Of a stretch of 64,000 nucleotides of DNA, positions 188-43,891 are shown piece by piece. Made by a program: the position numbers and the translations under genes. Numbering within the stretch: position 1 is the stretch's first letter; each line of letters opens with the position of its first letter. Below the pieces are notes generated by a model, which made no database searches, was not told where the DNA came from, and worked only from the letters and a program-made list of their open reading frames with translations. The DNA lies in assembly GCF_003991875.1 (NCBI RefSeq), contig NZ_CP031423.1:2604001-2668000 (forward strand), read 5' to 3'. This stretch comes from Microbacterium lemovicicum (GTDB lineage Bacteria > Actinomycetota > Actinomycetes > Actinomycetales > Microbacteriaceae).

Positions 188-261
188 GTTTGCACAACGA
201 ACAATTGTCCGCAATACGCACACTATCGTTCGTATTGCGATTGTTCGTTCGCATATCGTAC
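188..261. promoter_or_regulatory. Cluster of four 15-bp IclR-type operator sites in a divergent promoter
   Basis: Seen directly: GTTTGCACAACGAAC at 188-202, GTCCGCAATACGCAC at 207-221, the reverse-strand copy AATCGCAATACGAAC at 228-242, and GTTCGCATATCGTAC at 247-261. They fit the window consensus GTTCRCNATACGNAC. Start-to-start spacings are 19, 21 and 19 bp. A possible -10 element TATCGT (254-259) lies in the last site and the third site covers the -35 area, so a bound protein should repress the SDR at 291. Known context: PcaU/PobR-type IclR regulators bind repeats resembling GTTCGATAATCGCAC. Inference: the IclR protein encoded at 39511 binds here. Confidence 0.6.
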
Positions 262-290
262 AGTTTGACGAATCCGAGGAGGGAGCCATC

Positions 291-1076
291 GTGATCGACG
301 GCGCAGAGATGACGGGCCGCGAGCCCGTCCGAGCGGTGGGTCTTCTGACCGGCCGGCGCTTCCTCGTCACGGGCGGCGCACGCGGCATCGGCGCGGCGGT
401 CGTGCACCTGCTCTCCGAGCACGGTGCGCACGGCGCCGTCATCGACCTGGGCGAGCCGGAGACGGCCGGCCCCTGGCCGGCACGGTCCGCCGACGTCGCC
501 GACGAGCACGCCATGCGCGCGGCGGTCGCCGACCTGGTCGCGCAGAACGGGCCGTTCGACGGCCTCGTGGCCGCCGCGGGCGTCGTGCCGTCCTGGCACT
601 CCCCCGAGGACATCGACCTCGACGACTTCGACCGCGTCCAGCGCGTGAACACCCGGGGGATCGTCGTGTCGCTCAAGACGGTCGTACCCGGCATGCCCGA
701 CGGCTCCACGGTCGTCGCCATCGGGTCGCTCAACTCGTGGAAGGGCGACGCGCACCTCCTCTCCTACGTCGCGAGCAAGCACGCGGTGCTCGGCATCGTC
801 CGCTCCGCGGCTCTAGCCCTGGGCTCCCGCGGCATCCGGGTCAACGCCGTCGCCCCCGGCCCGGTGGCGACCGAGGCGCTCCTCTCGCGCATCGACAGCC
901 GAGTGGATGCCACGGGCCGCACCCGCGACGAAGCGCTGGCCTCGTCCGCCTCGGCGACGGCCCTGCAGCGACTCGCCACTCCCGACGACGTCGCGGGCGC
1001 GGTGCTCTTCCTCTCCAGCCCCCTGGCGGCGGCGATCACCGGACATCTGCTGCCCGTCGACGGCGGCCTGTCGTGA
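291..1076 (+). CDS. SDR-family oxidoreductase
   Basis: A 261-residue short-chain dehydrogenase/reductase, NAD(P)-dependent and probably cytosolic. The Rossmann motif VTGGARGIG sits near residues 25-33, a catalytic Ser in VVAIGSLNS, the YVASK catalytic Tyr-Lys pair, and the usual C-terminal ITGHLLPVDGG. The length is normal for classical SDRs. The start chosen is GTG 291, preceded six bases upstream by GAGGAGGGAG (276-285); a longer in-frame start at 186 would run through the operator cluster and is unlikely. It is the first gene of a tight forward run (13 bp to the next SDR) and probably oxidises a hydroxyl group of the catabolic substrate. Substrate not predictable. Confidence 0.88.
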   Translation: MIDGAEMTGREPVRAVGLLTGRRFLVTGGARGIGAAVVHLLSEHGAHGAVIDLGEPETAGPWPARSADVADEHAMRAAVADLVAQNGPFDGLVAAAGVVPSWHSPEDIDLDDFDRVQRVNTRGIVVSLKTVVPGMPDGSTVVAIGSLNSWKGDAHLLSYVASKHAVLGIVRSAALALGSRGIRVNAVAPGPVATEALLSRIDSRVDATGRTRDEALASSASATALQRLATPDDVAGAVLFLSSPLAAAITGHLLPVDGGLS

Positions 1077-1089
1077 GGAGGGCGGAGGG

Positions 1090-1839
1090 ATGACCTCGCT
1101 CGACGGGCGCACCGCGCTCATCACCGGCGTCTCGGGCGGCATCGGCACGGCGCTGGCCGCGACCTTCGCCCGCGAGGGCGCGGCCGTCATCGGGACCTAC
1201 CGGCAGCGCCGCGCCGAAGCCGAGACGGCGGTCCCCGGAGGGCTCGCCCAGCTGCTCGACGCCGACCTGTCCGATGCCGGCGCGGCGCGCGATCTCTGGC
1301 GGCGCGCGCGGGCCGCGGCATCCATCGACACCCTCGTGGTCAACGCGGCCACCCTCGTCCCCACGGCTCTCGACGCCGACGACGAGGACTGGGACGACGG
1401 CTGGCAGCGGTCGCTGCAGACCAACGTCGTCGCCGCCTCCACCCTGATGCGCGCCGCGGCCGCCGACTTCGCCGAGCGGGGGTCGGGGTCCATCATCGCG
1501 ATCTCGAGCTGGGCCGCCCAGCAGGGGTCGCGCCTGCCCGACCTGGGCGCCTACGCCGCCTCGAAGGCCGCCCTCCGCAACTTCGCCCAGACGCTCGCCC
1601 GCGCGACGGCACGCGACGGCGTGCGCGTGTACACCCTCGCCCCCGGCCCCGTCGGCACCGGCATGGGGACGGTCGACCGCGACGACGACGAGATCCGCGC
1701 GGTCGCCGACGGCCTCGCGATGGGCCGCCACGTGGACGCGCAGGAGATCGCCGAGCTCGCCGCCTTCCTCGCGAGCGATCGCTGCCCCAGCCTGACCGGA
1801 TCCACCCTCGACCTGAACGGCGCGAGCTACATCCGCTGA
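1090..1839 (+). CDS. SDR-family oxidoreductase (paralogue of the SDR at 38692)
   Basis: A 249-residue short-chain dehydrogenase. It has TGVSGGIG at the cofactor site, VVNAAT in place of the common NNAG, Ser in IAISSWA, and YAASK. ATG 1090 follows GGCGGAGGG. The C terminus TGSTLDLNGASYIR is nearly identical to the end of the SDR at 38692-39456, and both have SSW next to the catalytic Ser, so the two are close paralogues. Both lie downstream of the same 15-bp operator type, suggesting related steps in one pathway. Substrate unknown. Confidence 0.88.
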   Translation: MTSLDGRTALITGVSGGIGTALAATFAREGAAVIGTYRQRRAEAETAVPGGLAQLLDADLSDAGAARDLWRRARAAASIDTLVVNAATLVPTALDADDEDWDDGWQRSLQTNVVAASTLMRAAAADFAERGSGSIIAISSWAAQQGSRLPDLGAYAASKAALRNFAQTLARATARDGVRVYTLAPGPVGTGMGTVDRDDDEIRAVADGLAMGRHVDAQEIAELAAFLASDRCPSLTGSTLDLNGASYIR

Positions 1840-1883
1840 CGCGGTGCCGCCGCCACGAGCACGACCTGCGAATCGGACGTCCC

Positions 1884-3050
<1,167 letters not shown>

Positions 3051-3096
3051 AGCTGTTGAGGGTTCTGACCGTCTCATCATCGACCTCGAGCGAGCG

Positions 3097-3102
3097 TAGA
3101 CT
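3097..3102 (+). promoter_or_regulatory. -10 element of a probable leaderless promoter
   Basis: TAGACT (TAnnnT type) is separated by eight bases from GTG 3111 and no Shine-Dalgarno is visible before that codon. In actinobacteria this arrangement commonly gives a leaderless mRNA beginning at the start codon. It suggests the aldolase at 3111 has its own promoter and is not only read through from the SDR/dehydrogenase run. Confidence 0.45.
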
Positions 3103-3110
3103 GATCGTTT

Positions 3111-3872
3111 GTGAACACTGACGCGATGTCCTCCGTTCAGGTCGGCGCCTGGTCGATGCTCGGCACGGCCGCCGCGGCATCGCTGATGTCGCGAATCGGC
3201 GCCGACTGGGTGGTGCTGGACTCCCAGCACGGCCTGTACGACGACGCCGGCGTGATCGCTGCCGTCCCCGCCGCGGCGTCGGTGCCCGTCCATGTGCGGG
3301 TCAGCGCGAACACGCCCGCGCTCATCGGCCGGGCCCTCGACGCCGGAGCTGCCGGCGTCATCGTGCCGATGGTGCAGGATGCCGCGGAGGCGGTCGCCGC
3401 GGCGGCCGCCTGCCGCTACGCGCCCGAAGGCATCCGGTCATGGGGGCCGCTGGCCGCCTACCGCGGCGAGAGCACCGTGCCCCCCGCCGAGGCGAACGCA
3501 CGCGTCTCGTGCGCGGTGATGGTCGAGACCCCCACCGCCGTCGCAGACGTCGAGGCGATCGCCGCCGCCCCCGGGGTCGACATCGTGTTCGTCGGCCCCT
3601 TCGACCTCTCGATCGCCCTCGGCGTCGAGGTGGCGGATCTTCTCGCCGACCGCACGCCCGGCAACCCGCTGGACCGCATCGTGGCCGCGTGTCGCGCGGC
3701 GGGCACCGTCGCGGGCGCCTTCGCCGGTGGAAGGGATGCTGCCGACGCCCTGCTCAGCCGCGGCTTCACCTGGATCGCCGTCGCCGTGGACACGCAGCTC
3801 ATCACCGCCGCGGGCACCGCGCTCGTCGCCGACACCCGCGGCGCAGCCCGCCGCCCGGAGGAGAACCGATGA
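3111..3872 (+). CDS. HpcH/HpaI-family class II aldolase
   Basis: A 253-residue TIM-barrel aldolase of the HpcH/HpaI type: metal-dependent retro-aldol cleavage of a 4-hydroxy-2-oxo acid to pyruvate plus an aldehyde. Landmarks: VVLDSQHG with His40 as the likely catalytic base, Arg63 in HVRVS, VIVPMVQDAAEA, the metal ligands Glu139 in VMVETPTA and Asp165 in VGPFDLS. The start is GTG 3111 (leaderless model); ATG 3126 is an alternative. It overlaps the next gene by ATGA and follows the hydroxyacid dehydrogenase by 60 bp, so it may cleave a downstream keto intermediate. The aldehyde partner is unknown. Confidence 0.85.
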   Translation: MNTDAMSSVQVGAWSMLGTAAAASLMSRIGADWVVLDSQHGLYDDAGVIAAVPAAASVPVHVRVSANTPALIGRALDAGAAGVIVPMVQDAAEAVAAAAACRYAPEGIRSWGPLAAYRGESTVPPAEANARVSCAVMVETPTAVADVEAIAAAPGVDIVFVGPFDLSIALGVEVADLLADRTPGNPLDRIVAACRAAGTVAGAFAGGRDAADALLSRGFTWIAVAVDTQLITAAGTALVADTRGAARRPEENR

Positions 3873-5542
3873 CCGACACCGTCCGCCGCATCGCCGACGA
3901 GTACGTCCGCGCGCTGGCCGCGCACGAGCCCGCCGCCGCCCAGGCGCTCGGCGAGCGCCCGACCCGGCCGCTCGCCGACCTCTCGCCGGAGTGGCTGGAG
4001 GAGCGCTACGCGCTGCAGGGCGAGACCCTGCGCCGACTGGCCGGCCTGCCCGCCGACGCCGACGACGCGGTGCTGCGCTCGGCGATGACGGAGCGGCTCA
4101 CCAGCGACCGCGGCTTCTACGACACGGGCTTCACCCCCCGGATGGTGGCGGGCCTCGCGAGCCCCGTGCATCTCATCCTGGAGAGCATCGAGGGACTCCC
4201 GATCTCCGACGACGAGGCCGGCATGGCCGTCCTCGAGCGGCTGGAGGCGGCACCGGCATCCGTCGACGACTACATCCGCGCGCTCGAGCGCGCACGGGAG
4301 CTCGGACGCCGAGGTCGCTTCACCGGCACGGGCGTCGCCGCTGTCCGGCAGATCGACCTCCTCGCCCAGCAGGTGGAGGGCTGGGTGGCCACCGACTACT
4401 TCGGCCGCGTTCCTCGCGAGGAGGGGCTCTCCTCCGCCGCCGCCGATCGCGCCGATCGGGCCGCGCGCGAGATGGCGGAGGCGCTGACGCGCCTCGCCCG
4501 CTTCCTGCGGGACGACCTCCGGGCGGATGCCCCCGAGGAGGACGCGATGGGCGAAGACGTCTACCCGGCGATGGTGGCGAGCATGCTGGGCACCCCGGTC
4601 GACCTCCGGGAGGTCTACGCCTACGGGTGGAGCGAGCTGGAGCGGCTGGTCGCGCAGTCGCGCGATCTGGCGTCGCGGCTCGGCGGCACGGGCACCGACC
4701 CCGTGCGCTCCGCGGGCGCTCTGCTCGACGAGGATCCGCGCTACCGCCTCGAGGGCGTCCCCGCGATCACCGCGTGGCTCCGTGAGCGGGTCGACGAGAC
4801 CACGCGGGCCCTGCAGGGCGTCGCGTTCGACCTGCCCCCGACGATCGCGGACGTGGACTGCCTCGTGTCGCAGGCCTCCAGCGGCGTGGTCTACTACACC
4901 CCGGCGCCGCCGAACGCGGAAGTTCCGAGCCGCATCGTCTGGACCATCCCCAGCGGCGTGCCCTTCGCCGCCACGTGGCACGAGGTCTCCAGCGTCCATC
5001 ACGAAGGCCTGCCCGGACACCACCTCGAGCACACGGTCAACCGCGCCAACGCCGACCTGCACCCCTGGCAGCGCTACCTGTGCGAGGTGCACGGCTACGC
5101 CGAGGGCTGGGCGCACTACGCGGAGGGGCTGTCGGACGAGCTCGGCCTGATCCGCGACGACGCCGAGCGTCTCGGCATGGTGCTGGGTCAGATCTGGCGC
5201 GCCGTCCGGATCGTGGCCGACATCGGCATGCACACCGACTGGCCCGTGCCCGAGACGCCCCTCACCGATCAGACGCGGTGGACGCCGCAGCTCGCGCGCG
5301 AGTTCCTCGAGGAGTTCGCCTTCGTCGAGCCCGACCTGGCCCGGTTCGAGGTCGACCGCTACCTCGGCATCCCGGGTCAGGCGCTCGCCTTCAAGGTCGG
5401 CGCCAAGCTGTGGGTCGACGCCCGCACCGCATGGCGTGCCCGCCACGGCGACGACGCACCGCTGCGCGACTTCCACCGCGACGCGCTCGCCCTGGGCCCC
5501 ATGGGGCTGGGCCCGCTGCGCGACCTGCTGCTCGCGGACTGA
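3869..5542 (+). CDS. DUF885-family putative metallopeptidase
   Basis: A 557-residue DUF885 protein. The family marker HEGLPGHH is at 378-385 and EGWAHYAEGL near 413; together they look like a zinc site (His, His, Glu) of a gluzincin-like peptidase. No signal peptide is evident, so it should act in the cytoplasm. ATG 3869 overlaps the aldolase stop (ATGA) and GGAGGAG at 3857-3863 is its ribosome site, indicating translational coupling. A diverged paralogue is at 18931. Enzymatic proof for bacterial DUF885 is scarce; hydrolysis of a small amide or peptide is an inference. Its coupling to an aldolase suggests it releases a substrate from a conjugate. Confidence 0.82.
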   Translation: MTDTVRRIADEYVRALAAHEPAAAQALGERPTRPLADLSPEWLEERYALQGETLRRLAGLPADADDAVLRSAMTERLTSDRGFYDTGFTPRMVAGLASPVHLILESIEGLPISDDEAGMAVLERLEAAPASVDDYIRALERARELGRRGRFTGTGVAAVRQIDLLAQQVEGWVATDYFGRVPREEGLSSAAADRADRAAREMAEALTRLARFLRDDLRADAPEEDAMGEDVYPAMVASMLGTPVDLREVYAYGWSELERLVAQSRDLASRLGGTGTDPVRSAGALLDEDPRYRLEGVPAITAWLRERVDETTRALQGVAFDLPPTIADVDCLVSQASSGVVYYTPAPPNAEVPSRIVWTIPSGVPFAATWHEVSSVHHEGLPGHHLEHTVNRANADLHPWQRYLCEVHGYAEGWAHYAEGLSDELGLIRDDAERLGMVLGQIWRAVRIVADIGMHTDWPVPETPLTDQTRWTPQLAREFLEEFAFVEPDLARFEVDRYLGIPGQALAFKVGAKLWVDARTAWRARHGDDAPLRDFHRDALALGPMGLGPLRDLLLAD

Positions 5543-5588
5543 CCGGTCGACTCAGGCGCTCCCGACAGGTCGGGGCACCGTCTGCCCA

Positions 5589-5616
5589 CACCGACGGATC
5601 GCGGGCGCCGTCGGTG
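5589..5616. terminator. Intergenic hairpin between convergent genes
   Basis: CACCGACGG (5589-5597) pairs exactly with CCGTCGGTG (5608-5616) across a 10-base loop. It lies between the DUF885 stop (5542) and the stop of the reverse ABC ATPase (5618). No T-run follows on either side, so it is a plausible but not classical bidirectional terminator. Confidence 0.5.
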
Positions 5617-5617
5617 C

Positions 5618-8274: not shown

Positions 8275-8283
8275 CACGTCACC

Positions 8284-16886: not shown

Positions 16887-18671
16887 TCACTCGTTGATGA
16901 ACACATTCGTGACGTCGCCGTTCTTCGTCCACGCCAGGTACTCGAAGCCGCCGACGCGGCTCGAGTGGAACACCGGCGTGCGGGCGAAGGTGACGGGGAT
17001 CCAGGCGGCTTCCTCCGTCGCGACGGCGTCCGCGGCGATCCAGGCCTCGTTCGCCTCCTCCGGCGTGGCTGCGGCGAGCGCCTCGTCGATGAGTCCGTTG
17101 AACTCCTCGTTGTTCCAGCCTCCGAAGTTGGGCGAGCCGGCGGCGTAGCCGCGACCGTCCAGCATCGGCACCAGGTACGGGCGGCCGCCGAAGTAGTCGG
17201 CGCTCCACGCGGCGATGGCGATGTCCCACTCGCCGGCCTCGGTGATGTCCTGGTTGAGGAGGAACTCGCTGTAGAACGCGTTCTGCGTGGTGACCTTCAT
17301 CTCCACCTGGAAGCCGGCGGCCTGGAGGTCCTGCTGCATCGCCGCGGCGATCGAGGCGTACGGCTCGGTCTCGCGGTAGAGCAGGCGCACCGGGGCGCCG
17401 TCGGGGTAGCCGGCGTCGGCGAGCATCTGCTTCGCCTTCGCGGGGTCGCCGCTCTCGGGTACGCCGAGCACGTTCGCCTGCTCCGTGCCGAGCACCTCGG
17501 GGGGCAGGATCTGCGTCGCGACGGCCGCGAGGCCGGGTCCGCCGAGGATCTGCTGCACGGCGGAGCGGTCGACGGCGAAGTTGAGCGCCTGGCGCACGGC
17601 GGTCTTGCCGTACGCGCCGTCGGCGTTCGGGCTGAGCGTGTTGATCACGACATAGGGACGGATGGCTCCGTCGCCGCCGATCACGAGGCGCTCGTCCTTC
17701 GTGCCGAGCAGCGCCGGCACGGATGCGGTCGGGGTGACGGTGTCGGCCCACTGCATGTCGACGGTGCCCGCCTCCAGCTGCTGCTGCACGGCGGCGGCAT
17801 CCTGACCCATCGCGATCTCGATCGCGTCGACGTTCGCCTTGCGGACGGGGTCGAGGTCGGCCTTCCACACGGGGTTGCGCTCGAGGGTGAAGCTCTGGTC
17901 GGGAACGTACTCCGCGATCCGGTACGGGCCGGAGGAGATGATGTTCTGACGCAGCTCGGGCGAGTCCGGCAGGTAGTCGAGGTACTCGACCGGCTGCGGC
18001 GCGAGGAAGACGCCGAGCGCGAGGATGTCGAGGAAGTCCGCGGCCGGCTGCGTGATCGTGAACTGCACGGTGCGCTCGGCCGTGGCCTGCACGCCGGCGA
18101 TGTCGTTGCCCTCGACATAGGCCTTGATGGCGTCGACGCTCGGGTCGACGGCCGAGAAGCCCTCGCAGTAGGCGGCGAGTCCGACGATCGTGTCGGTGAA
18201 GTACGACAGCGCGTTCGAGGGCGAGACCGGGTTGCAGATGCGCTTCGCGGCGAGCACGACGTCCTCGGCCGTGATGGCGCGCGCGCCGCTCGGGGCGTCG
18301 AACTCCACGCCCTCCTGCAGCTCGATCGTGTAGACCGTGCCGTCCTCGGAGATGCCGCCGTTCTCGCGCGTCGGGATCTCTGTCGCCAGGTCGGCGACGA
18401 TCTCCGTCGCGTCGGTGTCGCCCTCGCCCGGCACCTGGGCGAACAGCGTGCGGGTCAGCGCGCGGTGGATCTGGTAGTCGGGAGCCGAGTAGGCCGCCGC
18501 GGGGTCGAGGTACAGGACGTCGGAGTTGCCGGCGAGCTTCAGCGTTCCGCCGGTGGTGGCCTCGACGTCGGCGTCGCCCCCACCACCCTGGGGGGCCGAG
18601 CAGGCGCTGAGCAGCAGGACGGGGACGGCGATGACGGCGGCCAGCAGAGCTGACCGTGATCGGTGAGGCAT
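16887..18671 (-). CDS. Peptide ABC transporter substrate-binding lipoprotein, DppA-like
   Basis: A 594-residue SBP_bac_5 lipoprotein: signal peptide with lipobox LLSAC, then GGTLKLAGNSDVLYLDPA and the typical EDGTVYTIELQEGVEFDAPSG and ITAEDVVLAAKRICNP segments. It captures oligopeptides (or similar) outside the membrane. ATG 18671 is preferred to an upstream in-frame start at 18722 because GAGAGGAAAG lies directly ahead and the signal peptide then begins MPHRSRSALL. First gene of the operon reading down to 9412. Upstream is a promoter-like element shared with the second peptide operon (18741-18773). Confidence 0.9.
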   Translation of the reverse strand: MPHRSRSALLAAVIAVPVLLLSACSAPQGGGGDADVEATTGGTLKLAGNSDVLYLDPAAAYSAPDYQIHRALTRTLFAQVPGEGDTDATEIVADLATEIPTRENGGISEDGTVYTIELQEGVEFDAPSGARAITAEDVVLAAKRICNPVSPSNALSYFTDTIVGLAAYCEGFSAVDPSVDAIKAYVEGNDIAGVQATAERTVQFTITQPAADFLDILALGVFLAPQPVEYLDYLPDSPELRQNIISSGPYRIAEYVPDQSFTLERNPVWKADLDPVRKANVDAIEIAMGQDAAAVQQQLEAGTVDMQWADTVTPTASVPALLGTKDERLVIGGDGAIRPYVVINTLSPNADGAYGKTAVRQALNFAVDRSAVQQILGGPGLAAVATQILPPEVLGTEQANVLGVPESGDPAKAKQMLADAGYPDGAPVRLLYRETEPYASIAAAMQQDLQAAGFQVEMKVTTQNAFYSEFLLNQDITEAGEWDIAIAAWSADYFGGRPYLVPMLDGRGYAAGSPNFGGWNNEEFNGLIDEALAAATPEEANEAWIAADAVATEEAAWIPVTFARTPVFHSSRVGGFEYLAWTKNGDVTNVFINE

Positions 18672-33561: not shown

Positions 33562-34572
33562 TCACGCTCCCGCCACGTGCCCGCCGGCCCCCAGCGGGTT
33601 CGCCGCGCCCCGGCGCACCGCGAGGAGCTCCATCATCGCCGCGTCGCGGACACGCACGTTCTCGTCCCATGAGTCGTACGGGAGCGCCTCCTCGATGCGC
33701 GCGGCGACGCGCTCGACGGTCTCGGGCGACCAGGGGTCGTCCGCTCCGCGCTCCAGCCCCATGCGGGCGTAGACCGGACCCAGCACCTCGGCATGACGGC
33801 GGAGCCCGCCGCGGGTGTTCAGCTCGCTGGTCGCGAACGGTCCGATGACCGACCAGCGCAGACCCAGACCCTCGCGCACGATCGTGTCGAGATCGACGGG
33901 AGAGACGACGCCGTCCCGCACGAGACAGTAGGCCTCGCGCAGCAGGGCGCCCTGCAGGCGGTTGAAGACGAAGCCCTCGATCTCCGCGTTGATGAGGATG
34001 GGGGCGATGCCGCAGCTCTGCAGCAGCTCCGAGGCGACGCGGATCGACCGCTCCGAGGTGAAGGGGGCGGGCACGACCTCGGCCACCCGCAGGAAGAACG
34101 GCGGATTGCCCGGATGCACGACCAGGCACCGCTCGCGCCCGTCGAGTCCGGCGGCGAACCGCGACGCCTCGATGGTCGAGCTGGAGCTGGCCAGCACGAC
34201 ATCCGGTCCGGTGAGGCGGTCGAGGTCGGCGAACATCCGCCGCTTCACCTCGACGTCCTCGCCGATGCACTCCTGCACGTAGTCGACACCCTCGACGGCT
34301 TCCGCCAGCGTGGACCACACGGTGATGCGCGCCCGGGCCTGCGACGCCGATCCCTCCAGCACGCCGGCCGCCTCGAGTCCGTCGAGGATCGCCTCCACCT
34401 CGGCGGGCACGACCGCGCGCCGTGCAGGGTCGATCTCGAAGATCCGGACAGCGCGACCCGCGCCGGCGAAGACCGTGGCCCATGCCACGCCGATGCTCCC
34501 GGAGCCGACGACGGCGACCGCGGCCACCGCACCGCCGGAGTCGACGTCGACGGCCGCCCCCGCGGCATCCAC
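33562..34572 (-). CDS. 3-hydroxyacyl-CoA dehydrogenase-family (lambda-crystallin-like) enzyme
   Basis: 336 residues, close paralogue of the protein at 1884-3050. VVGSGSIGVAWATVF (21-35) binds NAD; SSSSTIEASRF and VVHPGNPPFFL form the active-site region; EGFVFNRLQGALLREAYCLV and IGPFATSELNTRGGLRRHAE belong to the C-terminal domain. It ends at the point where the other copy begins its Ala-Pro tail. GTG 34572 lies three bases after the DapA-like stop, so the two are co-transcribed. Likely oxidises a 3-hydroxy acid; why two copies exist is unclear. Confidence 0.82.
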   Translation of the reverse strand: MDAAGAAVDVDSGGAVAAVAVVGSGSIGVAWATVFAGAGRAVRIFEIDPARRAVVPAEVEAILDGLEAAGVLEGSASQARARITVWSTLAEAVEGVDYVQECIGEDVEVKRRMFADLDRLTGPDVVLASSSSTIEASRFAAGLDGRERCLVVHPGNPPFFLRVAEVVPAPFTSERSIRVASELLQSCGIAPILINAEIEGFVFNRLQGALLREAYCLVRDGVVSPVDLDTIVREGLGLRWSVIGPFATSELNTRGGLRRHAEVLGPVYARMGLERGADDPWSPETVERVAARIEEALPYDSWDENVRVRDAAMMELLAVRRGAANPLGAGGHVAGA

Positions 34573-34575
34573 GAC

Positions 34576-35508
34576 CTACAGGCCGATCTGGCGCGTGACG
34601 TCGTCGAGCTCGTCGATGACGGCGCCGATGCGCGCGAGCCGCTCTTCGCCCTCCTGGCCCAGCTGCGGGAAGGTCGTCAGCGGCGGGCGCACGTCGCCCA
34701 TGGGGTACCCGGCGCGCGCGGCGAGCCGCTTCGAGTAGGCCTGATGACCGTACGTGGGGTGGCCGGCGGCGATGATCGCGTCGAACCGCTTGATGAGGCC
34801 GTCGATGCGCCGCGCCTCCTCGATGCGGCCGGAGGTCAGCAGGCCCCAGATCCCGGCGGACGCGCGCGGGATGTAGTTGCCGTACGGGTTGACGTAGCCC
34901 TCGGCCCCGAGGAGGAACGAGTCGACGACCCGCTCTCCGGCGTAGACGGTGATGGCGTCACCGGCGAGGTCGATCACGTCGCGGACGCGCGCGATGTCCT
35001 GCGACGACTCCTTGATGTAGGAGATCGTGGGGAAGTCCTTGGCGAGCCGGGCCACCAGCGCCGCGCTCATGTCGACGTTGGAGGTGACGGGGTTGTTGTA
35101 GAGCATGATGGGCAGGTCCATCGCCTCGACGATCGCGGCGTAGTGCCGGTAGATCTCGTCGTCGGTCGGCGTGTAGTAGTACGGGGGCACGATCATGAGA
35201 CCGTCCGCGCCGAGGTCGCGCGCCTCCACGCTCTGGGCCACCGCTTTCGTCGTCGACGCGTCGGCGGTGCCCACCAGGACGGGGATGCGGCCGTCGATGT
35301 GCTTCACCGTCTCGTCCACCAGCAGGCGCCGCTCCTCGGGGGTGACGGTGAGGAACTCGCCGGTGGTGCCCAGCATGATGATGCCGGGGACGCCCTCCTC
35401 GAGCTGCCAGTCGAGGAACGCCTTGAGCCGGTCGACGTCGATCCGGCTGAGGTCGTCGGAGAAGGGCGTGACGGCGACCGTGTACGACCCGGAGAAGGTG
35501 GCAGTCAT
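34576..35508 (-). CDS. DapA-family (dihydrodipicolinate synthase/N-acetylneuraminate lyase superfamily) lyase or dehydratase
   Basis: 310 residues, TIM barrel. GTTGE (48-52) binds the oxo-acid carboxylate, Tyr137 (LYNNP) is the proton relay, and Lys166 (YIKESS) is the Schiff-base lysine, so the class I chemistry is intact. It is unlikely to be biosynthetic DapA given its catabolic neighbours; family members include hydroxyproline-pathway deaminase LhpC, dehydratases of sugar acids and oxo-acid aldolases. ATG 35508 has GAGAGG five to ten bases upstream; a longer start at 35529 would overlap the operator. Divergent from the DAO oxidase across a 57-bp gap with an IclR-type site. Confidence 0.82.
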   Translation of the reverse strand: MTATFSGSYTVAVTPFSDDLSRIDVDRLKAFLDWQLEEGVPGIIMLGTTGEFLTVTPEERRLLVDETVKHIDGRIPVLVGTADASTTKAVAQSVEARDLGADGLMIVPPYYYTPTDDEIYRHYAAIVEAMDLPIMLYNNPVTSNVDMSAALVARLAKDFPTISYIKESSQDIARVRDVIDLAGDAITVYAGERVVDSFLLGAEGYVNPYGNYIPRASAGIWGLLTSGRIEEARRIDGLIKRFDAIIAAGHPTYGHQAYSKRLAARAGYPMGDVRPPLTTFPQLGQEGEERLARIGAVIDELDDVTRQIGL

Positions 35509-35531
35509 GAATGACCTCTCTGCGAACATGT

Positions 35532-35546
35532 GTACGTATTGTGAAC
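35532..35546. promoter_or_regulatory. IclR-type operator between divergent DapA-like and DAO genes
   Basis: The reverse strand reads GTTCACAATACGTAC, an exact fit to the window consensus GTTCRCNATACGNAC. A TAnnnT -10 element for the oxidase (TACGAT, 35554-35559) is eight bases downstream, so the site sits over its -35 region and could block both divergent promoters. Confidence 0.6.
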
Positions 35547-35565
35547 ACCAGGATACGATGTAAGC

Positions 35566-36723
35566 ATGTCAAACCGGAAGTCGGATGTCGAGGTGTTCGA
35601 CGTGGCCGTCGTCGGCGGCGGCGCGAGCGGCTGCGCCACGGCGTACAACCTGGCCATGGCCGGGGCGTCGGTGGTCGTGCTCGAACGCCATGACCTCAAC
35701 ACCGAGGCATCCGGTCGCAACGCCGGCAGCCTGCACGGCCAGATCCAGCACGAGCCCTTCCTGGAGGAGGGCGAGGAGTGGGCGCGCGCGTGGATCCCCG
35801 CTCTGCGCTTCCTCGCCGATTCGCTCGAGATCTGGGACGGCCTGAGCGACGAGCTCGGCACGGATCTCGAGGTCGCCAAGCGCGGCGGCATCCTGGTGGC
35901 CGACGACCCCGCGCAGCTCCCGGCCATCGAGCGCAAAGTCGCCATCGAGAACAGCGCCGGCATCGACAGCCGCATGCTCTCGGCGAGCGAGATCCGCGAG
36001 CTCGCCCCCTGGCTCACCACCGACGCCGTGGGCGGCGAGCTCTGCCCCATCGAGGGGAAGGCCAACCCCCTGCTGGTGGCGCCGGCCTTCGCGCAGCGGG
36101 CGACCGATCGGGGTGCGGTGCTGCGCGCCGGTTCGCCGGTCGAGGGCTTCCGCGAAGAGGGCGGCCTGCACTACCTCCGCACGCCGCGCGGTGAGGTCGC
36201 CGCGCGCACGGTCGTGCTCGCGGGCGGCGACGGCATGCCCGCGCTCGCGCGCCACTTCGGCATCGATCTGCCGATCTCCAGCGGCGCGGTCCAGGTCAGC
36301 GTCACGGAGCGCATGGAGCCGATGGTCTCGCACCTCGTCTACTACGCGGGCGGCAAGCTCACCTTCAAGCAGGCGAAGGCCGGGACGCTGCTCATCGGCG
36401 GCGGGTGGCCGGCGCGGCAGAACGCCGCAGGCGAGTGGGTGGTGAACCCCGAGTCGCTCCGGGCGAACCTCGCCATGGCCGTGCGCATCGCGCCGTCGAT
36501 CGCCGACATCTCGCTGCTGCGCACGTGGGTCGGCATCGGCAACGGCACCCCCGATCACAGCCCGATCATCGGCGCCGTGCCGGGACGACCGCGCGTCATC
36601 CTGGGCTTCTACCCCTACATGGGCTTCACCGCGGCGCCGCTCATGGGCCGGGTGCTGACCGATCTGGTGCTGGAGCGCGACCCGGGCCGCGACCTCACGC
36701 CCTTCGCGCCCGATCGGTTCTGA
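35566..36723 (+). CDS. DAO-family FAD-dependent oxidase/dehydrogenase (HcnC/LhpB/OoxB-like)
   Basis: 385 residues. VAVVGGGASGCATAYNLAMAG (about 13-33) is the FAD-binding motif; SGRNAGSLHGQIQHEPF follows the isoalloxazine site; VVLAGGDGMPALARHF, then a C-terminal VGIGNGTPDHSPIIGAVPG. This is the D-amino acid oxidase/sarcosine oxidase class; the closest architecture is the beta subunit of HcnABC, opine oxidase or D-hydroxyproline dehydrogenase, whose partner subunits carry [2Fe-2S] and FAD. Such a partner fusion is encoded convergently at 36826. ATG 35566 lies six bases after a TACGAT -10 element, suggesting a leaderless mRNA. Confidence 0.82.
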   Translation: MSNRKSDVEVFDVAVVGGGASGCATAYNLAMAGASVVVLERHDLNTEASGRNAGSLHGQIQHEPFLEEGEEWARAWIPALRFLADSLEIWDGLSDELGTDLEVAKRGGILVADDPAQLPAIERKVAIENSAGIDSRMLSASEIRELAPWLTTDAVGGELCPIEGKANPLLVAPAFAQRATDRGAVLRAGSPVEGFREEGGLHYLRTPRGEVAARTVVLAGGDGMPALARHFGIDLPISSGAVQVSVTERMEPMVSHLVYYAGGKLTFKQAKAGTLLIGGGWPARQNAAGEWVVNPESLRANLAMAVRIAPSIADISLLRTWVGIGNGTPDHSPIIGAVPGRPRVILGFYPYMGFTAAPLMGRVLTDLVLERDPGRDLTPFAPDRF

Positions 36724-36788
36724 TCCCGGGAACGGGCGCGGCCGCCGACACGGCTCGCTCTTCTGCCGTCGCGGCGTCCAGCCCGTCG

Positions 36789-36840
36789 CGGCGCTCAGGA
36801 GGCGGCGGCGTTCAGGCGGCGGCGCTCAGGAGGCGGCGAC
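36789..36840. repeat. Short direct repeats at the 3-prime end of the HcnAB-like gene
   Basis: GGCGCTCAGGAGGCGGCG occurs twice (about 36790-36807 and 36821-36838), with a partial copy GGCGTTCAGGCGGCGGCG between. The last copy holds the stop codon of the gene at 36826, so its 3-prime end has been locally duplicated into the gap between convergent genes. Confidence 0.7.
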
Positions 36841-38538: not shown

Positions 38539-38569
38539 GCTCGCTCCTCGTCTCGCGCGGCCTGAGAGT

Positions 38570-38603
38570 GTTCACCATACGAACGACTGGTCGCTAAACG
38601 AAC
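38570..38603. promoter_or_regulatory. Two IclR-type operators in a divergent promoter
   Basis: GTTCACCATACGAAC (38570-38584) fits the consensus exactly; GGTCGCTAAACGAAC (38589-38603) has two differences. Starts are 19 bp apart. On the reverse strand TATGGT (38574-38579), a -10-like hexamer for the HcnAB-like gene, lies inside the first site; on the forward strand TAAGCT (38612-38617) is a -10 candidate for the SDR at 38692, with the second site over its -35 region. Confidence 0.6.
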
Positions 38604-38691
38604 ATACCGTCTAAGCTGATGAGCGTCCACACCTGACGACCACTTCACCACACGGAGTCTGCGCCTCCGTCGCCGCAGCCGGAGGCACGCC

Positions 38692-39456
38692 ATGACCGAT
38701 CTCGCCGACCGCACCATCCTCGTGACCGGCGCCTCCAGCGGCATCGGGCTGGCCATCGTGCAGCGGCTCGCCTCGACGGGCGCCCGCGTGATCGCGCACG
38801 CGAACACGAACCCCGACGGCGCACGCCGGGCCGTGGCATCCTTCCCGTCCGACAGAGCCCACGTGGTGCAGGCCGACCTCGCCGATCCGGCGGGCGCGGG
38901 CCGGCTGTGGGAGCAGGCGGAGACCTGGGCGGGCCGCATCGACGTCGTCGTCCTGAACGCGGCCATCATGCCCCGCATCGAGCTCGACGACACCGACGAG
39001 CGCTGGCAGGCCGTCATGGAGCAGGCGCTGCAGGTCAACACGCTCAGCCAGCTGACGCTCATCCGCCGGGCACTGGCGCACTTCGCGGGGCACGACGGCG
39101 GCACCATCGTCGGGCTCAGCAGCTGGGTGACTCAACGCGGCAGCGGTCACGCCAACCTCGTCGCGTACGCCGCATCGAAGGCGGCGACCGCCGCCGCGAT
39201 CAAGACGATCGCCCGCACCCACGCCGACCGCAACGTGCTGGCGTACCTGATCGCGCCCGGCGCGGTGGACACAGGGATGTCGGCGACGGCGAGCGCCGAC
39301 CGGGGCGGCCGGGAGGAGTTCCTGCGGGCGCTGGCCATGGGCGAGATGGTCCCGCCGGAGGAGATCGCCGAGCTCGTCTCCCTGCTGGCGTCCGGTCGCG
39401 TGCGCCACCTGAGCGGAGCGACCCTGGACATCAATGGCGCCTCATATATCAGGTGA
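38692..39456 (+). CDS. SDR-family oxidoreductase (paralogue of the SDR at 1090)
   Basis: 254 residues. TGASSGIG cofactor motif (12-19), VVLNAAIM, catalytic Ser in GLSSWVTQ, Tyr-Lys in YAASKAA, and the terminal SGATLDINGASYIR shared with the SDR at 1090-1839. ATG 38692 follows GGAGGCACGCC. It is 54 bp upstream of the IclR gene and downstream of two IclR-type sites, so it is probably auto-regulated together with its regulator and acts in the same pathway as the HcnAB/DAO oxidase. Confidence 0.88.
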   Translation: MTDLADRTILVTGASSGIGLAIVQRLASTGARVIAHANTNPDGARRAVASFPSDRAHVVQADLADPAGAGRLWEQAETWAGRIDVVVLNAAIMPRIELDDTDERWQAVMEQALQVNTLSQLTLIRRALAHFAGHDGGTIVGLSSWVTQRGSGHANLVAYAASKAATAAAIKTIARTHADRNVLAYLIAPGAVDTGMSATASADRGGREEFLRALAMGEMVPPEEIAELVSLLASGRVRHLSGATLDINGASYIR

Positions 39457-39510
39457 TGAGTAAGGTGAGGACGATCACGCACGACGTCCGCCGGTCGAGG
39501 GAGCCCCGCC

Positions 39511-40308
39511 ATGCAAGCCAGAGAGCCCCATCAGCCCTCCGGTGAGTTCGTCCAGTCCCTCGCTCGCGGTCTCGCGGTCATCCGTGCGTTCTCCGACGAA
39601 CGCACCATGCTCACCCTGGCCGACGTCGCCAAGATCGCGGGACTCAGCCGCGCCTCCGCGCGTCGATCCCTCCTGACTCTCGAGACGCTCGGCTACGTCG
39701 GGATGCAGCAGAACCGCTTCTACCTGCGGCCGCGGGTGCTCGACCTCGGCTACGCGTTCCTCTCCTCCTCGTCGAGCGTGGACGTGACGCAGGACCACCT
39801 GCGCCGCCTGTCCGCGCGCATCGGCGAATCGTGCTCGGCCTGCGAGTACGACGACGGCGACATCGTCTACGTCGCCCGGGCGGCCGCCGACTCGGTCATG
39901 CCCCTCCGCGTGAGCATCGGCCGACGCATCCCCGCCTTCTGCACGTCCACCGGGCGGGTGCTGCTGTCGGCCATGCCGCCCGACGAGCTCGACGAGTTCT
40001 TTCGCGTGTACCCGCGGGAGAAATTCACTCCGCTCACCGTCACCGACGAAGGCGAGCTGCGCGAGCGCATCGCCGAGGTGCGCGCGCAGGGCTGGGCGGT
40101 CAACAACCAGGAGCTCGACCTCGGCGCCCGCTCGATCGCCGCTCCCGTCGTCGACAGCCGCACGGGCGCGTACATCAGCGCGGTGAACATCACCGTGTCG
40201 ACCTCCCGCGTCTCGGTCGACGAGCTGGTGGAGCAGTGCCTGCCGCTCCTGCTCGAGACCACGCGCCAGATCGGCTCGGACATCGCGCTGATGGGTCAGC
40301 AGCGCTGA
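39511..40308 (+). CDS. IclR-family transcriptional regulator (PcaR/PobR-like)
   Basis: 265 residues. N-terminal winged HTH: VQSLARGLAVIRAFSDERTM and VAKIAGLSRASARRSLLTLE; C-terminal ligand domain with SVMPLRVSIGRRIPAFCTSTGRVLL and GWAVNNQELDLGARSIAAPV, typical of the Pca/Pob branch. ATG 39511 has GAGGGAG upstream. It lies at the centre of the oxidase/transport locus and is the natural candidate to bind the 15-bp sites at 188-261, 35532, 38570 and 43839, which resemble known PcaU/PobR sites. Members can activate or repress; site positions over -35/-10 suggest repression here. Confidence 0.88.
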   Translation: MQAREPHQPSGEFVQSLARGLAVIRAFSDERTMLTLADVAKIAGLSRASARRSLLTLETLGYVGMQQNRFYLRPRVLDLGYAFLSSSSSVDVTQDHLRRLSARIGESCSACEYDDGDIVYVARAAADSVMPLRVSIGRRIPAFCTSTGRVLLSAMPPDELDEFFRVYPREKFTPLTVTDEGELRERIAEVRAQGWAVNNQELDLGARSIAAPVVDSRTGAYISAVNITVSTSRVSVDELVEQCLPLLLETTRQIGSDIALMGQQR

Positions 40309-40334
40309 CGCGTCACGGCTGACCGGCGCTGCCG

Positions 40335-41132
40335 TCAGGCTTCGGTCGCGTCCGCCCGGGTGTTGAGGATGCGCGAGAGGAACTTCCTCGTGCGCTCCTG
40401 CGTCGGGGCATCCAGCACCTGCTCGGGCGGCCCCATCTCGACGATGCGGCCCCCGTCCATGAAGGCGACGCGGTCGGCGACCTCACGGGCGAAGTCGATC
40501 TCGTGCGTGACGACGATCATCGTGAGTCCTTCGGAGGCGAGCCGCCGCATCACCGACAGCACCTCCCCGACCGTCTCCGGGTCGAGCGCGGAGGTGGGCT
40601 CGTCGAAGAGCATCACCTTGGGCCGCATCGCCAGGGCACGGGCGATGGCCGCGCGCTGCTGCTGCCCGCCGGACAGCTGCCGCGGGTAGGTGTCCTCCTT
40701 GCCCTCCAGGCGCACCCATTCGAGCAGCTGCCGGGCGTGGGCCTTCGCCTCCGCCCGCGGGGTGCCCAGCACCTGGATGGGCGCCTCGATGATGTTCTCG
40801 AGCACCGTCATGTGGCCGAAGAGGTTGAAGCTCTGGAAGACCATGCCGATCTCGGTCCGCTGCCGAGCGAGTTCGGCCGGTGCGACCTCGACCAGCTGAC
40901 CACGCGACTCCCGCACGCCGACGATCTCGCCGTTGAGGCGCACGACGCCGCCGTCGGGGCGCTCGAGGTGGTTGACGCATCGCAGAAGGGTGCTCTTGCC
41001 CGATCCGGAGGGTCCGATGATGCAGACGACCTCGGCCGGGAACACCTCGAGCTCGACCGCGTCGAGCACCTGGAGCGGGCCGTAGTGCTTGGAGATCGCC
41101 TCGAGCTGGACGATGGGCGCGGTGCGCGTCAT
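40335..41132 (-). CDS. Polar amino acid ABC transporter ATP-binding protein (GlnQ/HisP-like)
   Basis: 265 residues: [20 protein letters not shown]alker [19 protein letters not shown], signature [16 protein letters not shown], Walker [15 protein letters not shown] and [14 protein letters not shown] clear PAAT-family ATPase. ATG 41132 overlaps the permease stop (ATGA). Convergent with the IclR gene across 26 bp. Works with the permease at 41129 and binding protein at 42850. Confidence 0.9.
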
Positions 41133-42142
41133 TCCACCGGCTCCTTTCTGGGGACGTAGCTGGAGTGGCCGGTCCGCGACATGAGCTTCTTGAGCTTGGT
41201 CAGATAGGTGTCGGGCACGGTGCGGCTGGCGCCCTTGGCGTAGTACTTCTCGATGTAGTGCTGCCCGATGGAGAGCACGGAGGTCAGGAACAGGTACCAG
41301 ATGCAGGCGACGACCAGCAGCGGGATCGTCTCGAACGTGCGGGCGTAGATGACCTGCACCGTGTACAGCAGCTCGCTGATGGCGACGATGCTCACGAGGC
41401 TGGTGCCCTTCAGCATCGAGATGACCTGGTTGCCGGTCGGCGGCACGATGACCCGCATCGCCTGGGGGAGCACCACACGGCTCATCGCGCGACGACGCGA
41501 CATGCCGAGCGCGGCGGCCGCCTCGCTCTGGCCGTGATCGACCGACTGGATGCCGGCGCGGATGATCTCCGACATGTACGCGCCCTCGTTCAACCCGAGG
41601 CCGAGCATCGCGGCGACCATGGAGGTGATCACGGAGTTGGTGTCGACCTCCAGGAACTGCGGGCCGAACGGGATGCCGATCGACAGGCTCGGGAGGAAGC
41701 TGGCGAGGTTGTACCAGAACAGCAGCTGCACGAGCAGCGGAGTGCCGCGGAAGATCCAGATGTAGCCGTCCGCCGCCACGTTCAGCAGCAGGCTGCGCGA
41801 GATCTTCATGAGGGCGAGGATCAGGCCGATCAGGCAGCCCAGGATCATCGCGACGGCTGTGAGCACCAGGGTGAGGACGACGCCGTTGAGCACCTTCTGG
41901 TTGAAGAGGTAGAACCAGACGGTGTCCCACTTCATCGCGTCGGCGGTGAGGAACTTCGAGACGATGTCGAGGACGATCAGCACCACGACGATGCGCAGCA
42001 CCCAGCCGCCGATTTTCCCCCACATCCGCCGCGAGTCCGAGATGCGGACCGTCTTGGCGGTGTCGCGCCGGCCGATCTGCAGGGTGGCGGTCAGCGGACC
42101 CCGCTCCGCATCCCGCGGCGGCGGAGAATCGTTCGTCATCAT
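41129..42142 (-). CDS. Polar amino acid ABC transporter permease
   Basis: 337 residues. A hydrophilic N-terminal stretch of about 45 residues precedes the first helix ([15 protein letters not shown]). [16 protein letters not shown] and [20 protein letters not shown] plus [20 protein letters not shown] are the HisM/GlnP landmarks and coupling loop. C-terminal tail of about 40 residues after IEKYYAKG is longer than usual. ATG 42142 (second ATG at 42139) follows AGAGGACTCCG. Confidence 0.88.
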
Positions 42143-42169
42143 CGGAGTCCTCTTCGTGGGGGGATCTGG

Positions 42170-42778
42170 TCAGGCGCGGGGAGCGGCCGGAACGGTGAGC
42201 GACGTCATCGCCGACCATCCACCGTCGATTTCGAGCGACGATCCGGTCACGTGGCAGGACCGGTCGGAGGCGAGGAACGCCAGGGCGTCGTCGAGACCCT
42301 GGTCGTCGGGGCGGAGGGTGTTCACCCGCACCCCGTGCTCCTGGAGGTCGGGCGCGAGGCGTCCGACGAGGCGGTCGAGCGCCGTGAGGTTCGTCAGCGC
42401 GTCCGGCTCGTCGTCGGCGGCCCGGCCGACGGCGATGATCGACCCGCGGCCCCGTGCCGTCATGGCGGGGGCGAAGATGCGGATGGCCTCCCAGCACTCC
42501 CCCGTGTCGCGCGGCGAGGCGCTCGCGCAGTGCACGAGCACCTCCACCTCGGGGAACTCCAGGGCCACCGCGCCGAGGGCGTCGGCATCGCACGCGCAGG
42601 CGGTGCGGAGGGTGAAGCGGTCGTCGTGGCCGAAGCCGGCCTCGAGAGCCTCTCCGTCGCCGTCGGTCACGACGACGCGGGCCCCCCGCTCGGCCAGCAT
42701 GCGGGCACCGGCGCGGCCGAGGTCGCCGCCGGCGCGGATCACGAGCGCCGTGCGTCCGGTCAGATCGAGTGGGTTCAT
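42170..42778 (-). CDS. Degenerate SDR-like protein lacking catalytic residues
   Basis: 202 residues, shorter than the usual 245-260. The overall SDR plan is visible ([20 protein letters not shown] start, [21 protein letters not shown], and the ending [16 protein letters not shown]). However the TGxxxGxG motif reads RAGGDLG, the catalytic Ser region reads IIAVGRAAD and the YxxxK region reads [10 protein letters not shown], so both Ser and the Tyr-Lys pair appear to be missing. It is probably a non-enzymatic or re-purposed SDR. It sits between the binding-protein and permease genes of an amino acid importer; ATG 42778 follows GAGGGAACC. Confidence 0.75.
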
Positions 42779-42794
42779 GGTTCCCTCAGCCCTG

Positions 42795-42832
42795 CGCGCT
42801 CCGGCGTCCGGTCGAACGGACGCCGGAGCGCG
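42795..42832 (-). terminator. 16-bp perfect hairpin after an amino acid SBP gene
   Basis: CGCGCTCCGGCGTCCG (42795-42810), loop GTCGAA, exact complement at 42817-42832. It is 18 bases after the binding-protein stop and 17 bases before the degenerate SDR. Likely attenuates transcription after the abundant binding protein. Confidence 0.75.
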
Positions 42833-42849
42833 GCGAGGGCAGGCCTGGC

Positions 42850-43794
42850 TTACTGAGATGCCGCGGGGTTCGCCTCGGCCTTGTCGACGAGGCCGAAGTC
42901 GATGTCCCACGTGGCGAGGATCTTCTCGTACGACCCGTCGTCGATGAGCTTGTTCATCGCGGCGGTGATGGCCTCGGTCATGCCGGAGTCCTTGCCGACG
43001 GCGATGCCCTCGAGGTTCGGCTGGTAGTCGAGCGGCTGGATCTCGAAGCCCTCGACGCCGCTGCCGTCGCGCAGGAGCCAGCTGAGCTGGCCCTTCGCGG
43101 TCATGAACGCGTCGATGCGGTCGGAGGTGACCGCCAGCTGGGCGGCCGCCTGCTGCGGGAACGAGTCGATGGTCGGCGCCTCCTTGCCGGCACTCTGACA
43201 CAGGCTCTGGATCTCCTCGATCTGGATGAGGAAGGCCGAGCCGGCCAGGGCGCCGATGCGCAGCCCGCACAGATCCTCCGGGGCGGAGATCGTGAGGCCC
43301 GCGCCGTCGCGCGTGATGACGCCGGTCGTGCTCTCGTGCACGGCGACGATGTCGACGACGTCGAGACGCTCCTGGGTGACGATGATCGACGCCCACGACG
43401 TGTCGTAGCGGCCGTTCTGGATGCCGGGGATGAAGGTGTCGAACGCTCCGGAGACCTCGGCCTCGAAGGACAGCCCGAGGACGGCGGCGACGGCACGTCC
43501 GAGGTCGGGCCCCCACCCCGCGAGCTCGTCGTTCTCGTCGAGGAACGTGTCGGCCGGCGCGTTGTCGAACTGGATCGCCGTCAGCGTGCCGCTGGACGCG
43601 ACGTCCTCGGGGACCATCGCGGCGATGTCCGCGTCCTTCGCGATGCTGACGCCGGCGACCTCGACATCGCCTCCCGCGGATGCCCCGCCGGCGGGGGCGT
43701 CGGAGCCGCCGGCGCAGCCGGCGAGCGTGAGGGTGGCGGCGGTGACCGCAGCCAGACCCAGGAGACTGCGGCGGAACGGCGAGGGTGTCTTCAT
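42850..43794 (-). CDS. Polar amino acid ABC transporter substrate-binding lipoprotein
   Basis: A 314-residue SBP_bac_3 protein: signal peptide with lipobox LAGC, a Gly/Ser linker, then GTLTAIQFDNAPADTFLDEN, GWGPDLGRAVAAVLGLSFE and the FIPGIQNGRYDTSWASIIVT region that lines the ligand cleft in GlnH-like proteins. QFDNAPADTFLDE replaces the common TEATYPPFEF(v)D, hinting at an atypical ligand. ATG 43794 follows AGGAGCCCCCG; an upstream in-frame start at 43872 would be inside an operator. Three IclR-type sites lie 45-97 bases upstream. Confidence 0.87.
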   Translation of the reverse strand: MKTPSPFRRSLLGLAAVTAATLTLAGCAGGSDAPAGGASAGGDVEVAGVSIAKDADIAAMVPEDVASSGTLTAIQFDNAPADTFLDENDELAGWGPDLGRAVAAVLGLSFEAEVSGAFDTFIPGIQNGRYDTSWASIIVTQERLDVVDIVAVHESTTGVITRDGAGLTISAPEDLCGLRIGALAGSAFLIQIEEIQSLCQSAGKEAPTIDSFPQQAAAQLAVTSDRIDAFMTAKGQLSWLLRDGSGVEGFEIQPLDYQPNLEGIAVGKDSGMTEAITAAMNKLIDDGSYEKILATWDIDFGLVDKAEANPAASQ

Positions 43795-43838
43795 CGGGGG
43801 CTCCTGGGGTGGGACGGGGCGAGCCGGATGGGCCCGAC

Positions 43839-43891
43839 GTTCGCGGTATGGACAGTTGTTCGTTCTACGCACGAGTGTTCACTATGCGTTC
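43839..43891. promoter_or_regulatory. Three IclR-type operators at exact 19-bp spacing
   Basis: GTTCGCGGTATGGAC (43839-43853), GTTCGTTCTACGCAC (43858-43872) and GTTCACTATGCGTTC (43877-43891). All begin GTTC and their starts are exactly 19 bp apart, in direct orientation. They lie upstream of the reverse-strand amino acid binding-protein gene. PcaU-type regulators are known to use triple repeats; the arrangement here is the clearest of the four clusters. Confidence 0.62.

What the first reader, a model, noticed from the sequence alone, without database searches (positions are those of the whole stretch)
188..43891. A 15-bp IclR-type operator family with 19-bp periodicity links four promoters 43 kb apart
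Ten sites fit GTTCRCNATACGNAC or close variants: 188, 207, 228 (inverted), 247; 35532 (inverted); 38570, 38589; 43839, 43858, 43877. Start-to-start spacing is 19 bp in most neighbouring pairs and exactly 19 twice in a row at 43839-43891. They lie upstream of SDR/hydroxyacid dehydrogenase, DapA-like/DAO, HcnAB-like/SDR-IclR and the amino acid importer. The motif resembles the PcaU/PobR sites GTTCGATAATCGCAC, and an IclR gene is in the middle of the locus. Predicts a single regulon not obvious from gene order.
Basis: partly seen in the sequence, partly recalled or inferred. Interest (0 to 1): 0.82.

Follow-up and report, generated by a model that had tools for sequence, protein, structure and literature searches.

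The report
IclR operators shared by two paralogues
A set of short DNA sites, mostly in pairs 19 bases apart, sits in front of several operons for taking up and breaking down an amino-acid-like compound; comparison with relatives shows conserved switches of a known type, probably read by two sister regulators rather than one.

Summary
All ten 15-bp sites are at the stated places. When each promoter is held out in turn, eight of the ten outrank every non-site position in 84 kb; 43877 and 43839 do not. In 17 loci of other genomes the motif gives 97 hits against 4 in reversed sequence, and 33 of 55 close pairs are exactly 19 bp apart. The four window promoters keep sites in every orthologous promoter examined (6 or 7 each).

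Corrections: the box at 43839 is not conserved. The set continues outside the window: a fifth promoter with a 19-bp pair lies 11 kb to the left, beside a second IclR 69% identical to that at 39511. The 188-261 array goes with that second IclR in genomes lacking the first. Genome G086 lacks the 39511 regulator yet keeps sites at both modules, so one IclR can apparently serve both.

The palindrome and the 18-22-bp tandem spacing are already described for IclR regulators (PMC8222616). So: a new regulon of a known kind with an informative paralogue history. Binding untested; substrate unknown.

The parts
188..202 (+). IclR-type operator box 1 of the 4-box array (promoter P2)
   Evidence: score 17.0; array found in 7 of 7 related loci, one box under score 11 in two of them
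207..221 (+). P2 box 2
   Evidence: score 15.9; held out, no non-site above it
228..242 (-). P2 box 3, 21 bp after box 2
   Evidence: score 17.3; spacing 19/21/19 kept in relatives
247..261 (+). P2 box 4
   Evidence: score 17.0; conserved
291..1076 (+). SDR oxidoreductase, first gene of the rightward set (SDR-SDR-3HCDH-HpcH) behind P2; start at GTG 291 inferred from a ribosome-binding site
   Evidence: PF13561 on the longer ORF 186-1076; sequence
1884..3050 (+). 3-hydroxyacyl-CoA dehydrogenase-like protein
   Evidence: NF004783 386.6 bits, cut-off 347
3111..3872 (+). HpcH/HpaI aldolase
   Evidence: PF03328
33562..34572 (-). second 3-hydroxyacyl-CoA dehydrogenase-like protein; not seen at this place in the relatives
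   Evidence: NF004783 378 bits, cut-off 347
34576..35508 (-). DapA-like lyase/deaminase
   Evidence: PF00701; PDB relatives
35532..35546 (-). single operator, promoter P3 (DapA/DAO)
   Evidence: score 19.9; all 15 positions identical in 5 of 5 orthologous promoters aligned; present with changes in G086
35566..36723 (+). FAD-dependent (DAO) oxidoreductase
   Evidence: PF01266
36826..38538 (-). HcnAB/SoxA-like flavoprotein with a 2Fe-2S domain
   Evidence: Fer2_4, Pyr_redox_2, Fer2_BFD
38570..38584 (+). P4 box 1
   Evidence: score 18.1; kept in 6 of 6
38589..38603 (+). P4 box 2, starts where the -35 would lie
   Evidence: score 16.4; 19-bp partner at 10.5 or more in 6 of 6
38692..39456 (+). SDR oxidoreductase, upstream of IclR1
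   Evidence: PF00106
39511..40308 (+). IclR1, PcaR/PcaU/PobR-type regulator
   Evidence: TIGR02431 286 bits, cut-off 284.75
40335..41141 (-). ABC transporter ATPase (part of ORF 40335-42593; start approximate)
   Evidence: PF00005
41129..42142 (-). ABC permease
   Evidence: PF00528
42850..43794 (-). amino-acid-type solute-binding protein (start at 43794 inferred)
   Evidence: PF00497 on ORF 42850-43872
43839..43853 (+). third box at P5; doubtful
   Evidence: score 12.8; held out, 3 non-site positions score as high; no counterpart in 6 of 6 orthologous promoters
43858..43872 (+). P5 box
   Evidence: score 17.2; kept in 6 of 6
43877..43891 (+). P5 box, 19 bp on
   Evidence: score 15.1; kept in 6 of 6; held out, 1 non-site scores as high

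Best explanation
The sites are operators of PcaR-like IclR regulators. Each 15-bp palindrome (about GTTCGYNNNRCGAAC) would hold one dimer; two palindromes with centres 19 bp apart put two dimers on the same DNA face as a tetramer. They mark at least five promoters spread over about 55 kb (four in the window, one 11 kb to its left) for import and oxidation of an amino-acid- or opine-like compound. Two paralogues with very similar DNA-reading helices, IclR1 (39511) and IclR2 (left of the window), probably recognise the same sites, so the two modules form one overlapping regulon. At P1, P3 and P4 the promoter-proximal box covers the -35 position ahead of a TAN3T -10, so binding should directly switch the promoter. 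Shown: sites, spacing, conservation, co-occurrence, paralogy. Inferred: binding, tetramer, cross-recognition, descent from a one-regulator locus, direction of regulation, substrate.
For: IclR1 passes the PcaR/PcaU/PobR model. Held-out ranking of sites. In 17 loci of other genomes (342.6 kb) 97 hits at 10.5 or more against 4 reversed; 33 of 55 pairs within 80 bp are exactly 19 bp apart, none in the control. Sites kept: P1 10 of 10 loci (partner box 7.8-14.7, under 10.5 in six), P2 7 of 7, P3 6 of 6, P4 6 of 6, P5 pair 6 of 6. Of 149 genus genomes searched, own included, the module A marker is in 5 at 59% identity or more (and in G004 at 38%), the module B marker in the same 5; the 6 genomes with an IclR at 70% or more are those 5 plus G051. 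G086 has no IclR1 yet keeps P3, P4 and P5 sites. Helices LSRASARRSLLTL (IclR1) and LSRAAVRRALLTL (IclR2). Published 18-22-bp tandem spacing.
Against: No binding or expression data. P3 has one box only. M. kunmingense (L097) keeps IclR2 with no site at 10.5 or more in its 20.8-kb locus, only a weak 19-bp pair (7.9 and 9.1) just before the gene. Genome-wide pattern counts in genomes with these IclRs (14, 17, 28, 21, 16) overlap those of 15 without (4-23). A looser pattern is common genome-wide. Orthologous promoters are related by descent, so the counts are not independent. G004 has distant GcvPA-GcvPB-NAD-kinase-like genes (36-43%) with no site at 9 or more in the 20 kb seen.
Confidence: 0.72

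Rival explanations
1. Two separate regulons: IclR2 reads only P1 and P2, IclR1 only P3, P4 and P5, each with its own inducer.
For: The 188 array is kept with IclR2 in genomes without the module B marker or IclR1 (Plantibacter, Salinibacterium); each IclR gene lies in its own module behind its own paired sites.
Against: G086 has module B with its sites but no IclR1; DNA-reading helices very similar; one mixed locus with one IclR of this clade in Leucobacter and Aeromicrobium.
Confidence: 0.22
2. The canonical PcaR-like protein elsewhere in the genome is the main reader of these sites and ties the modules to the beta-ketoadipate pathway.
For: Same motif class and a 19-bp pair at a pcaI-like promoter near its gene; in CFH 31415 a pcaIJF-like operon with a 19-bp pair lies beside module A.
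Against: Relatives at 43-51% identity occur in many genomes of the genus (34 of 149 have a match at E 1e-60, 28 of them only at this level), while the module markers at 59% or more are in 5, all with IclR1/IclR2-clade genes.
Confidence: 0.1
3. The sites are chance matches in GC-rich sequence.
Against: Held-out ranking, exact spacing and conservation.
Confidence: 0.01

Closest known systems
IclR-family tandem operators (Suvorova and Gelfand 2021, PMC8222616; abstract, IclR-family section and passages seen)
   Same: GTNCG-N5-6-CGNAC palindrome; tandem sites with centres 18-22 (mainly 19-21) bp apart in 94 orthologous groups; tetramer reading
   Different: That paper says these regulators generally control themselves and one or two adjacent operons; here five promoters over about 55 kb and two paralogues
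PcaR of Corynebacterium glutamicum (motif as tabulated in PMC8222616)
   Same: Motif GTTCGC-N3-GCGAAC, the palindrome found here; name falls under the same model TIGR02431
   Different: Controls 4-hydroxybenzoate and protocatechuate use; these genes are of amino-acid transport and flavin dehydrogenase type
PcaU/PobR of Acinetobacter (as described in PMC8222616)
   Same: Subfamily and GTTCGATWATCGMAC-like palindrome
   Different: Palindrome plus an external direct half-site repeat; here whole palindromes in tandem
Flavin-containing opine and D-hydroxyproline dehydrogenases (PMC4575208; passages seen)
   Same: DAO beta subunit with 2Fe-2S and pyridine-nucleotide-type alpha/gamma parts
   Different: Here alpha- and gamma-like parts are fused in module B (inference); no proline racemase family member found in the genome

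Membership tests
TIGR02431 PcaR/PcaU/PobR regulators | Score over the curated cut-off 284.75 | tested here: met
   IclR1 286.0; IclR2 just under at 282.9
IclR family | IclR HTH and C-terminal effector domain | tested here: met
   PF09339 and PF01614 in IclR1
IclR operators of the PcaR type | GTNCG-N5-6-CGNAC palindrome | tested here: met
   sites, several with one or two departures; consensus
IclR tandem operators | Palindromes with centres 18-22 bp apart | tested here: met
   19 or 21 bp at P1, P2, P4, P5; P3 is single
IclR tandem operators | Binding as a tetramer | not testable with these tools
   no binding assay
trans-4-hydroxy-L-proline catabolism | Proline racemase-family hydroxyproline epimerase (role recalled) | tested here: not met
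   PF05544 finds 0 in the own genome
beta-ketoadipate (aromatic) regulon | Target genes of aromatic ring cleavage | tested here: inconclusive
   the targets scanned are SDR, DAO, DapA-like, HcnAB-like, aminotransferase, aldehyde dehydrogenase, ABC importer; the gene left of P2 belongs to the glyoxalase/dioxygenase superfamily, not resolved further

The most novel reading that the evidence does not exclude
One shared set of operators is read interchangeably, perhaps as mixed tetramers, by two IclR paralogues that arose when an ancestral one-regulator locus split into two modules; one lineage has since lost one reader while keeping the operators, giving a natural experiment on how duplicated regulators share or divide a regulon. 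The regulon runs an undescribed amino-acid- or opine-like catabolic route that may end in a CoA-transferase and thiolase step.
Probability: 0.35. Interest if true: 0.55.

Novelty: new member of a known kind. Interest (0 to 1): 0.38.

Why it matters
It turns about 55 kb of scattered catabolic genes into one testable regulon and offers a close relative in which one of two paralogous regulators is missing but its operators remain, useful for asking how duplicated regulators share targets. The operator architecture itself is already described.

Tried and rejected
Counting pattern hits with 3 mismatches: uninformative. Weak box 35513 as a 19-bp partner of 35532: rejected; the conserved GACCTCTCTGCG reads as the ribosome-binding region of the DapA-like gene on the minus strand (inference), and the box scores 5.4 in 5 of 5 orthologues. 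Hit at 17832 (14.4): inside a solute-binding-protein gene, treated as chance. Total motif counts per genome as a test: ranges overlap, 14-28 (mean 19.2) in 5 genomes with these IclRs, 4-23 (mean 12.3) in 15 without, so not used. Trans-4-hydroxy-L-proline as substrate: no epimerase family in the genome. Rfam: nothing at gathering scores. Ectoine-type hydrolase for the M24 genes: no NCBIfam family reached E 1e-60; weaker matches were not looked at. Six paper searches, listings only apart from the two papers cited, showed no paper on this regulon; open-licence papers only.

Errors of mine: the query A_SDRa was out of frame and is not used; the PcaR-like row was translated on the wrong strand, and the tree was rebuilt, which is the one cited.
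Full report
OBSERVATION. The ten sites are at the stated coordinates. The bare palindrome shows an excess only at up to 1 mismatch (5 against 0.9). Because a matrix built from the sites is circular, I held out one promoter at a time over 84,000 bases (L040 plus window): of 12 sites, 9 outrank every non-site position, L040:8951 and window 43877 have one non-site at or above them, and 43839 has three. Across the 3.56-Mb genome a loose pattern is common (81 plus 73 places, control 14 plus 22), but the A/T-centred palindrome with up to 2 mismatches gives 16 places (control 3), of which 10 lie in this 84 kb, one of those inside a coding gene at 17832.

WHAT LIES AROUND. The window is bases 2604001-2668000 of a single-contig genome. 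The protein at 39511 (IclR1) is a PcaR/PcaU/PobR-type IclR. A scan of the genome for this family gave 11 matches, among them a paralogue, IclR2, at 2594541, 69% identical, in stretch L040 left of the window. Between an aminotransferase gene and an aldehyde dehydrogenase-IclR2 pair lie two boxes 19 bp apart, L040:8932 and 8951, here called P1. The window promoters are P2 (188-261; to the right SDR-SDR-3HCDH-HpcH, to the left a glyoxalase-superfamily gene, then ABC importer genes and an HcnBC-like fusion), P3 (35532, DapA-like/DAO), P4 (38570-38603, HcnAB-like/SDR-IclR1) and P5 (43858-43891, solute-binding protein and importer). P1 and P2 with their genes are module A; P3 to P5 module B. In the 6-33 kb middle, where the genes scanned are of peptide transport, peptidase and aminotransferase type, the only site scoring 10 or more is the coding one at 17832.

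RELATIVES. Of 149 genomes of the genus (own included), orthologues of IclR1 at 89-90% are in 3 besides the own, and IclR2-type genes (72-73%) in 5 besides it. I fetched stretches from these and 24 named loci. In 17 loci outside the training window the matrix gives 97 hits at 10.5 or more and 4 in the same sequences reversed; of 55 pairs within 80 bp, 33 are 19 bp apart, 5 are 21, 10 are 40, 5 are 59 and 2 other; the control has none. By promoter: P1 pair in 10 of 10 loci (partner 7.8-14.7, under 10.5 in six), P2 array in 7 of 7 (one box under 11 in two), P3 in 6 of 6, P4 pair in 6 of 6, P5 pair in 6 of 6, but no counterpart of the 43839 box in 6 of 6. The nine more distant loci (L102-L110, 38-48% identical IclRs) were scanned but not counted: 19-bp pairs appear in L102, L103 and L106, 20-bp pairs in L107 and L108, none in L104, L105, L109 and L110 (threshold 11). 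L097 was left out of the count as a duplicate of L085.

NATURAL EXPERIMENTS. Genome G086 has the module B genes sought except iclR1, whose place holds another SDR gene, and except the 3HCDH-like gene at 33562, which is not seen there in the other relatives either. Sites remain at P3 (18.9), P4 (13.4/16.4) and P5 (16.0/15.1), and a further 19-bp pair (13.2/13.1) stands before the new SDR. Its two high-scoring TIGR02431 proteins are IclR2 (283.1 bits) and a canonical PcaR (337.7); the next scores 113. Plantibacter and Salinibacterium have module A, one IclR of this clade and no module B marker at E 1e-100. Leucobacter soli and an Aeromicrobium have module A and B genes interleaved in one locus with one IclR of this clade. 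M. kunmingense keeps IclR2 without the module A genes and with only a weak pair before it. In the tree of 22 rows the IclR1 clade (100/99) and IclR2 clade (99/99) are separate; Leucobacter joins IclR2 with weak support (81/86) and Aeromicrobium falls outside both (96/92), the root being drawn at the midpoint. This fits one ancestral regulator, duplication and loss of IclR1 in G086; transfer between lineages and the order of events were not tested.

MECHANISM. The published IclR survey describes the same palindrome class and tandem sites with centres 18-22 bp apart in 94 orthologous groups, read as tetramer binding. At P1 and P4 a TAN3T -10 (TATGCT, TAAGCT) begins 8 bp after the second box, and at P3 (TACGAT) 7 bp after its only box, so with a 17-bp spacer the -35 position falls on the first half of the box, one base before it at P3 (sequence; inference). 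The letters there do not resemble TTGACA, which favours activation over occlusion, but actinobacterial -35 elements are loose (recalled), so the sign stays open. The recognition helices of IclR1 and IclR2 differ at few positions, which together with G086 makes shared recognition likelier than division.

SUBSTRATE. Gene types point to uptake and flavin-dependent oxidation of an amino-acid-, imino-acid- or opine-like compound (PMC4575208 passages). The hydroxyproline epimerase family is absent. In some relatives a 19-bp pair also precedes an M24 peptidase-family gene (L089; in L087 with a SnoaL-like gene between) or a CoA-transferase/thiolase operon (L074).

VERDICT.

Noticed in passing
L040:3446-8923: Gene set GcvPB-GcvPA-NAD-kinase-like-class III aminotransferase facing an SSADH-IclR2 pair; the set is also in Leucobacter and Aeromicrobium. 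Pathway not recognised.
   Followed up: partly
L074:13112-15745: CoA-transferase subunits and thiolase (pcaIJF-like) behind a 19-bp operator pair next to module A in Microbacterium sp. CFH 31415, named by matching contig length.
   Followed up: partly
L120:1501-1534: Own genome: a 19-bp pair (16.0 and 9.9) before a pcaI-like gene about 3 kb from the canonical PcaR-like gene.
   Followed up: partly
L089:14570-15856: M24 peptidase-family gene behind a 19-bp pair in relatives, absent between P5 and the Lrp gene in the window.
   Followed up: partly
   Followed up: no
L107:10882-10916; L108:10859-10893: Distant IclR relatives (a Sphingomonadales MAG and Kordiimonas) show pairs 20 bp apart instead of 19.
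   Followed up: no
L001:1501-1515 (G000:C1:212277-212291): Strong lone motif (18.7) elsewhere in the genome; the ORF list beside it showed no clear gene start.
   Followed up: partly
L124:13213-17329: G004 has distant GcvPA-GcvPB-NAD-kinase-like genes (36-43%) without the operators.
   Followed up: no
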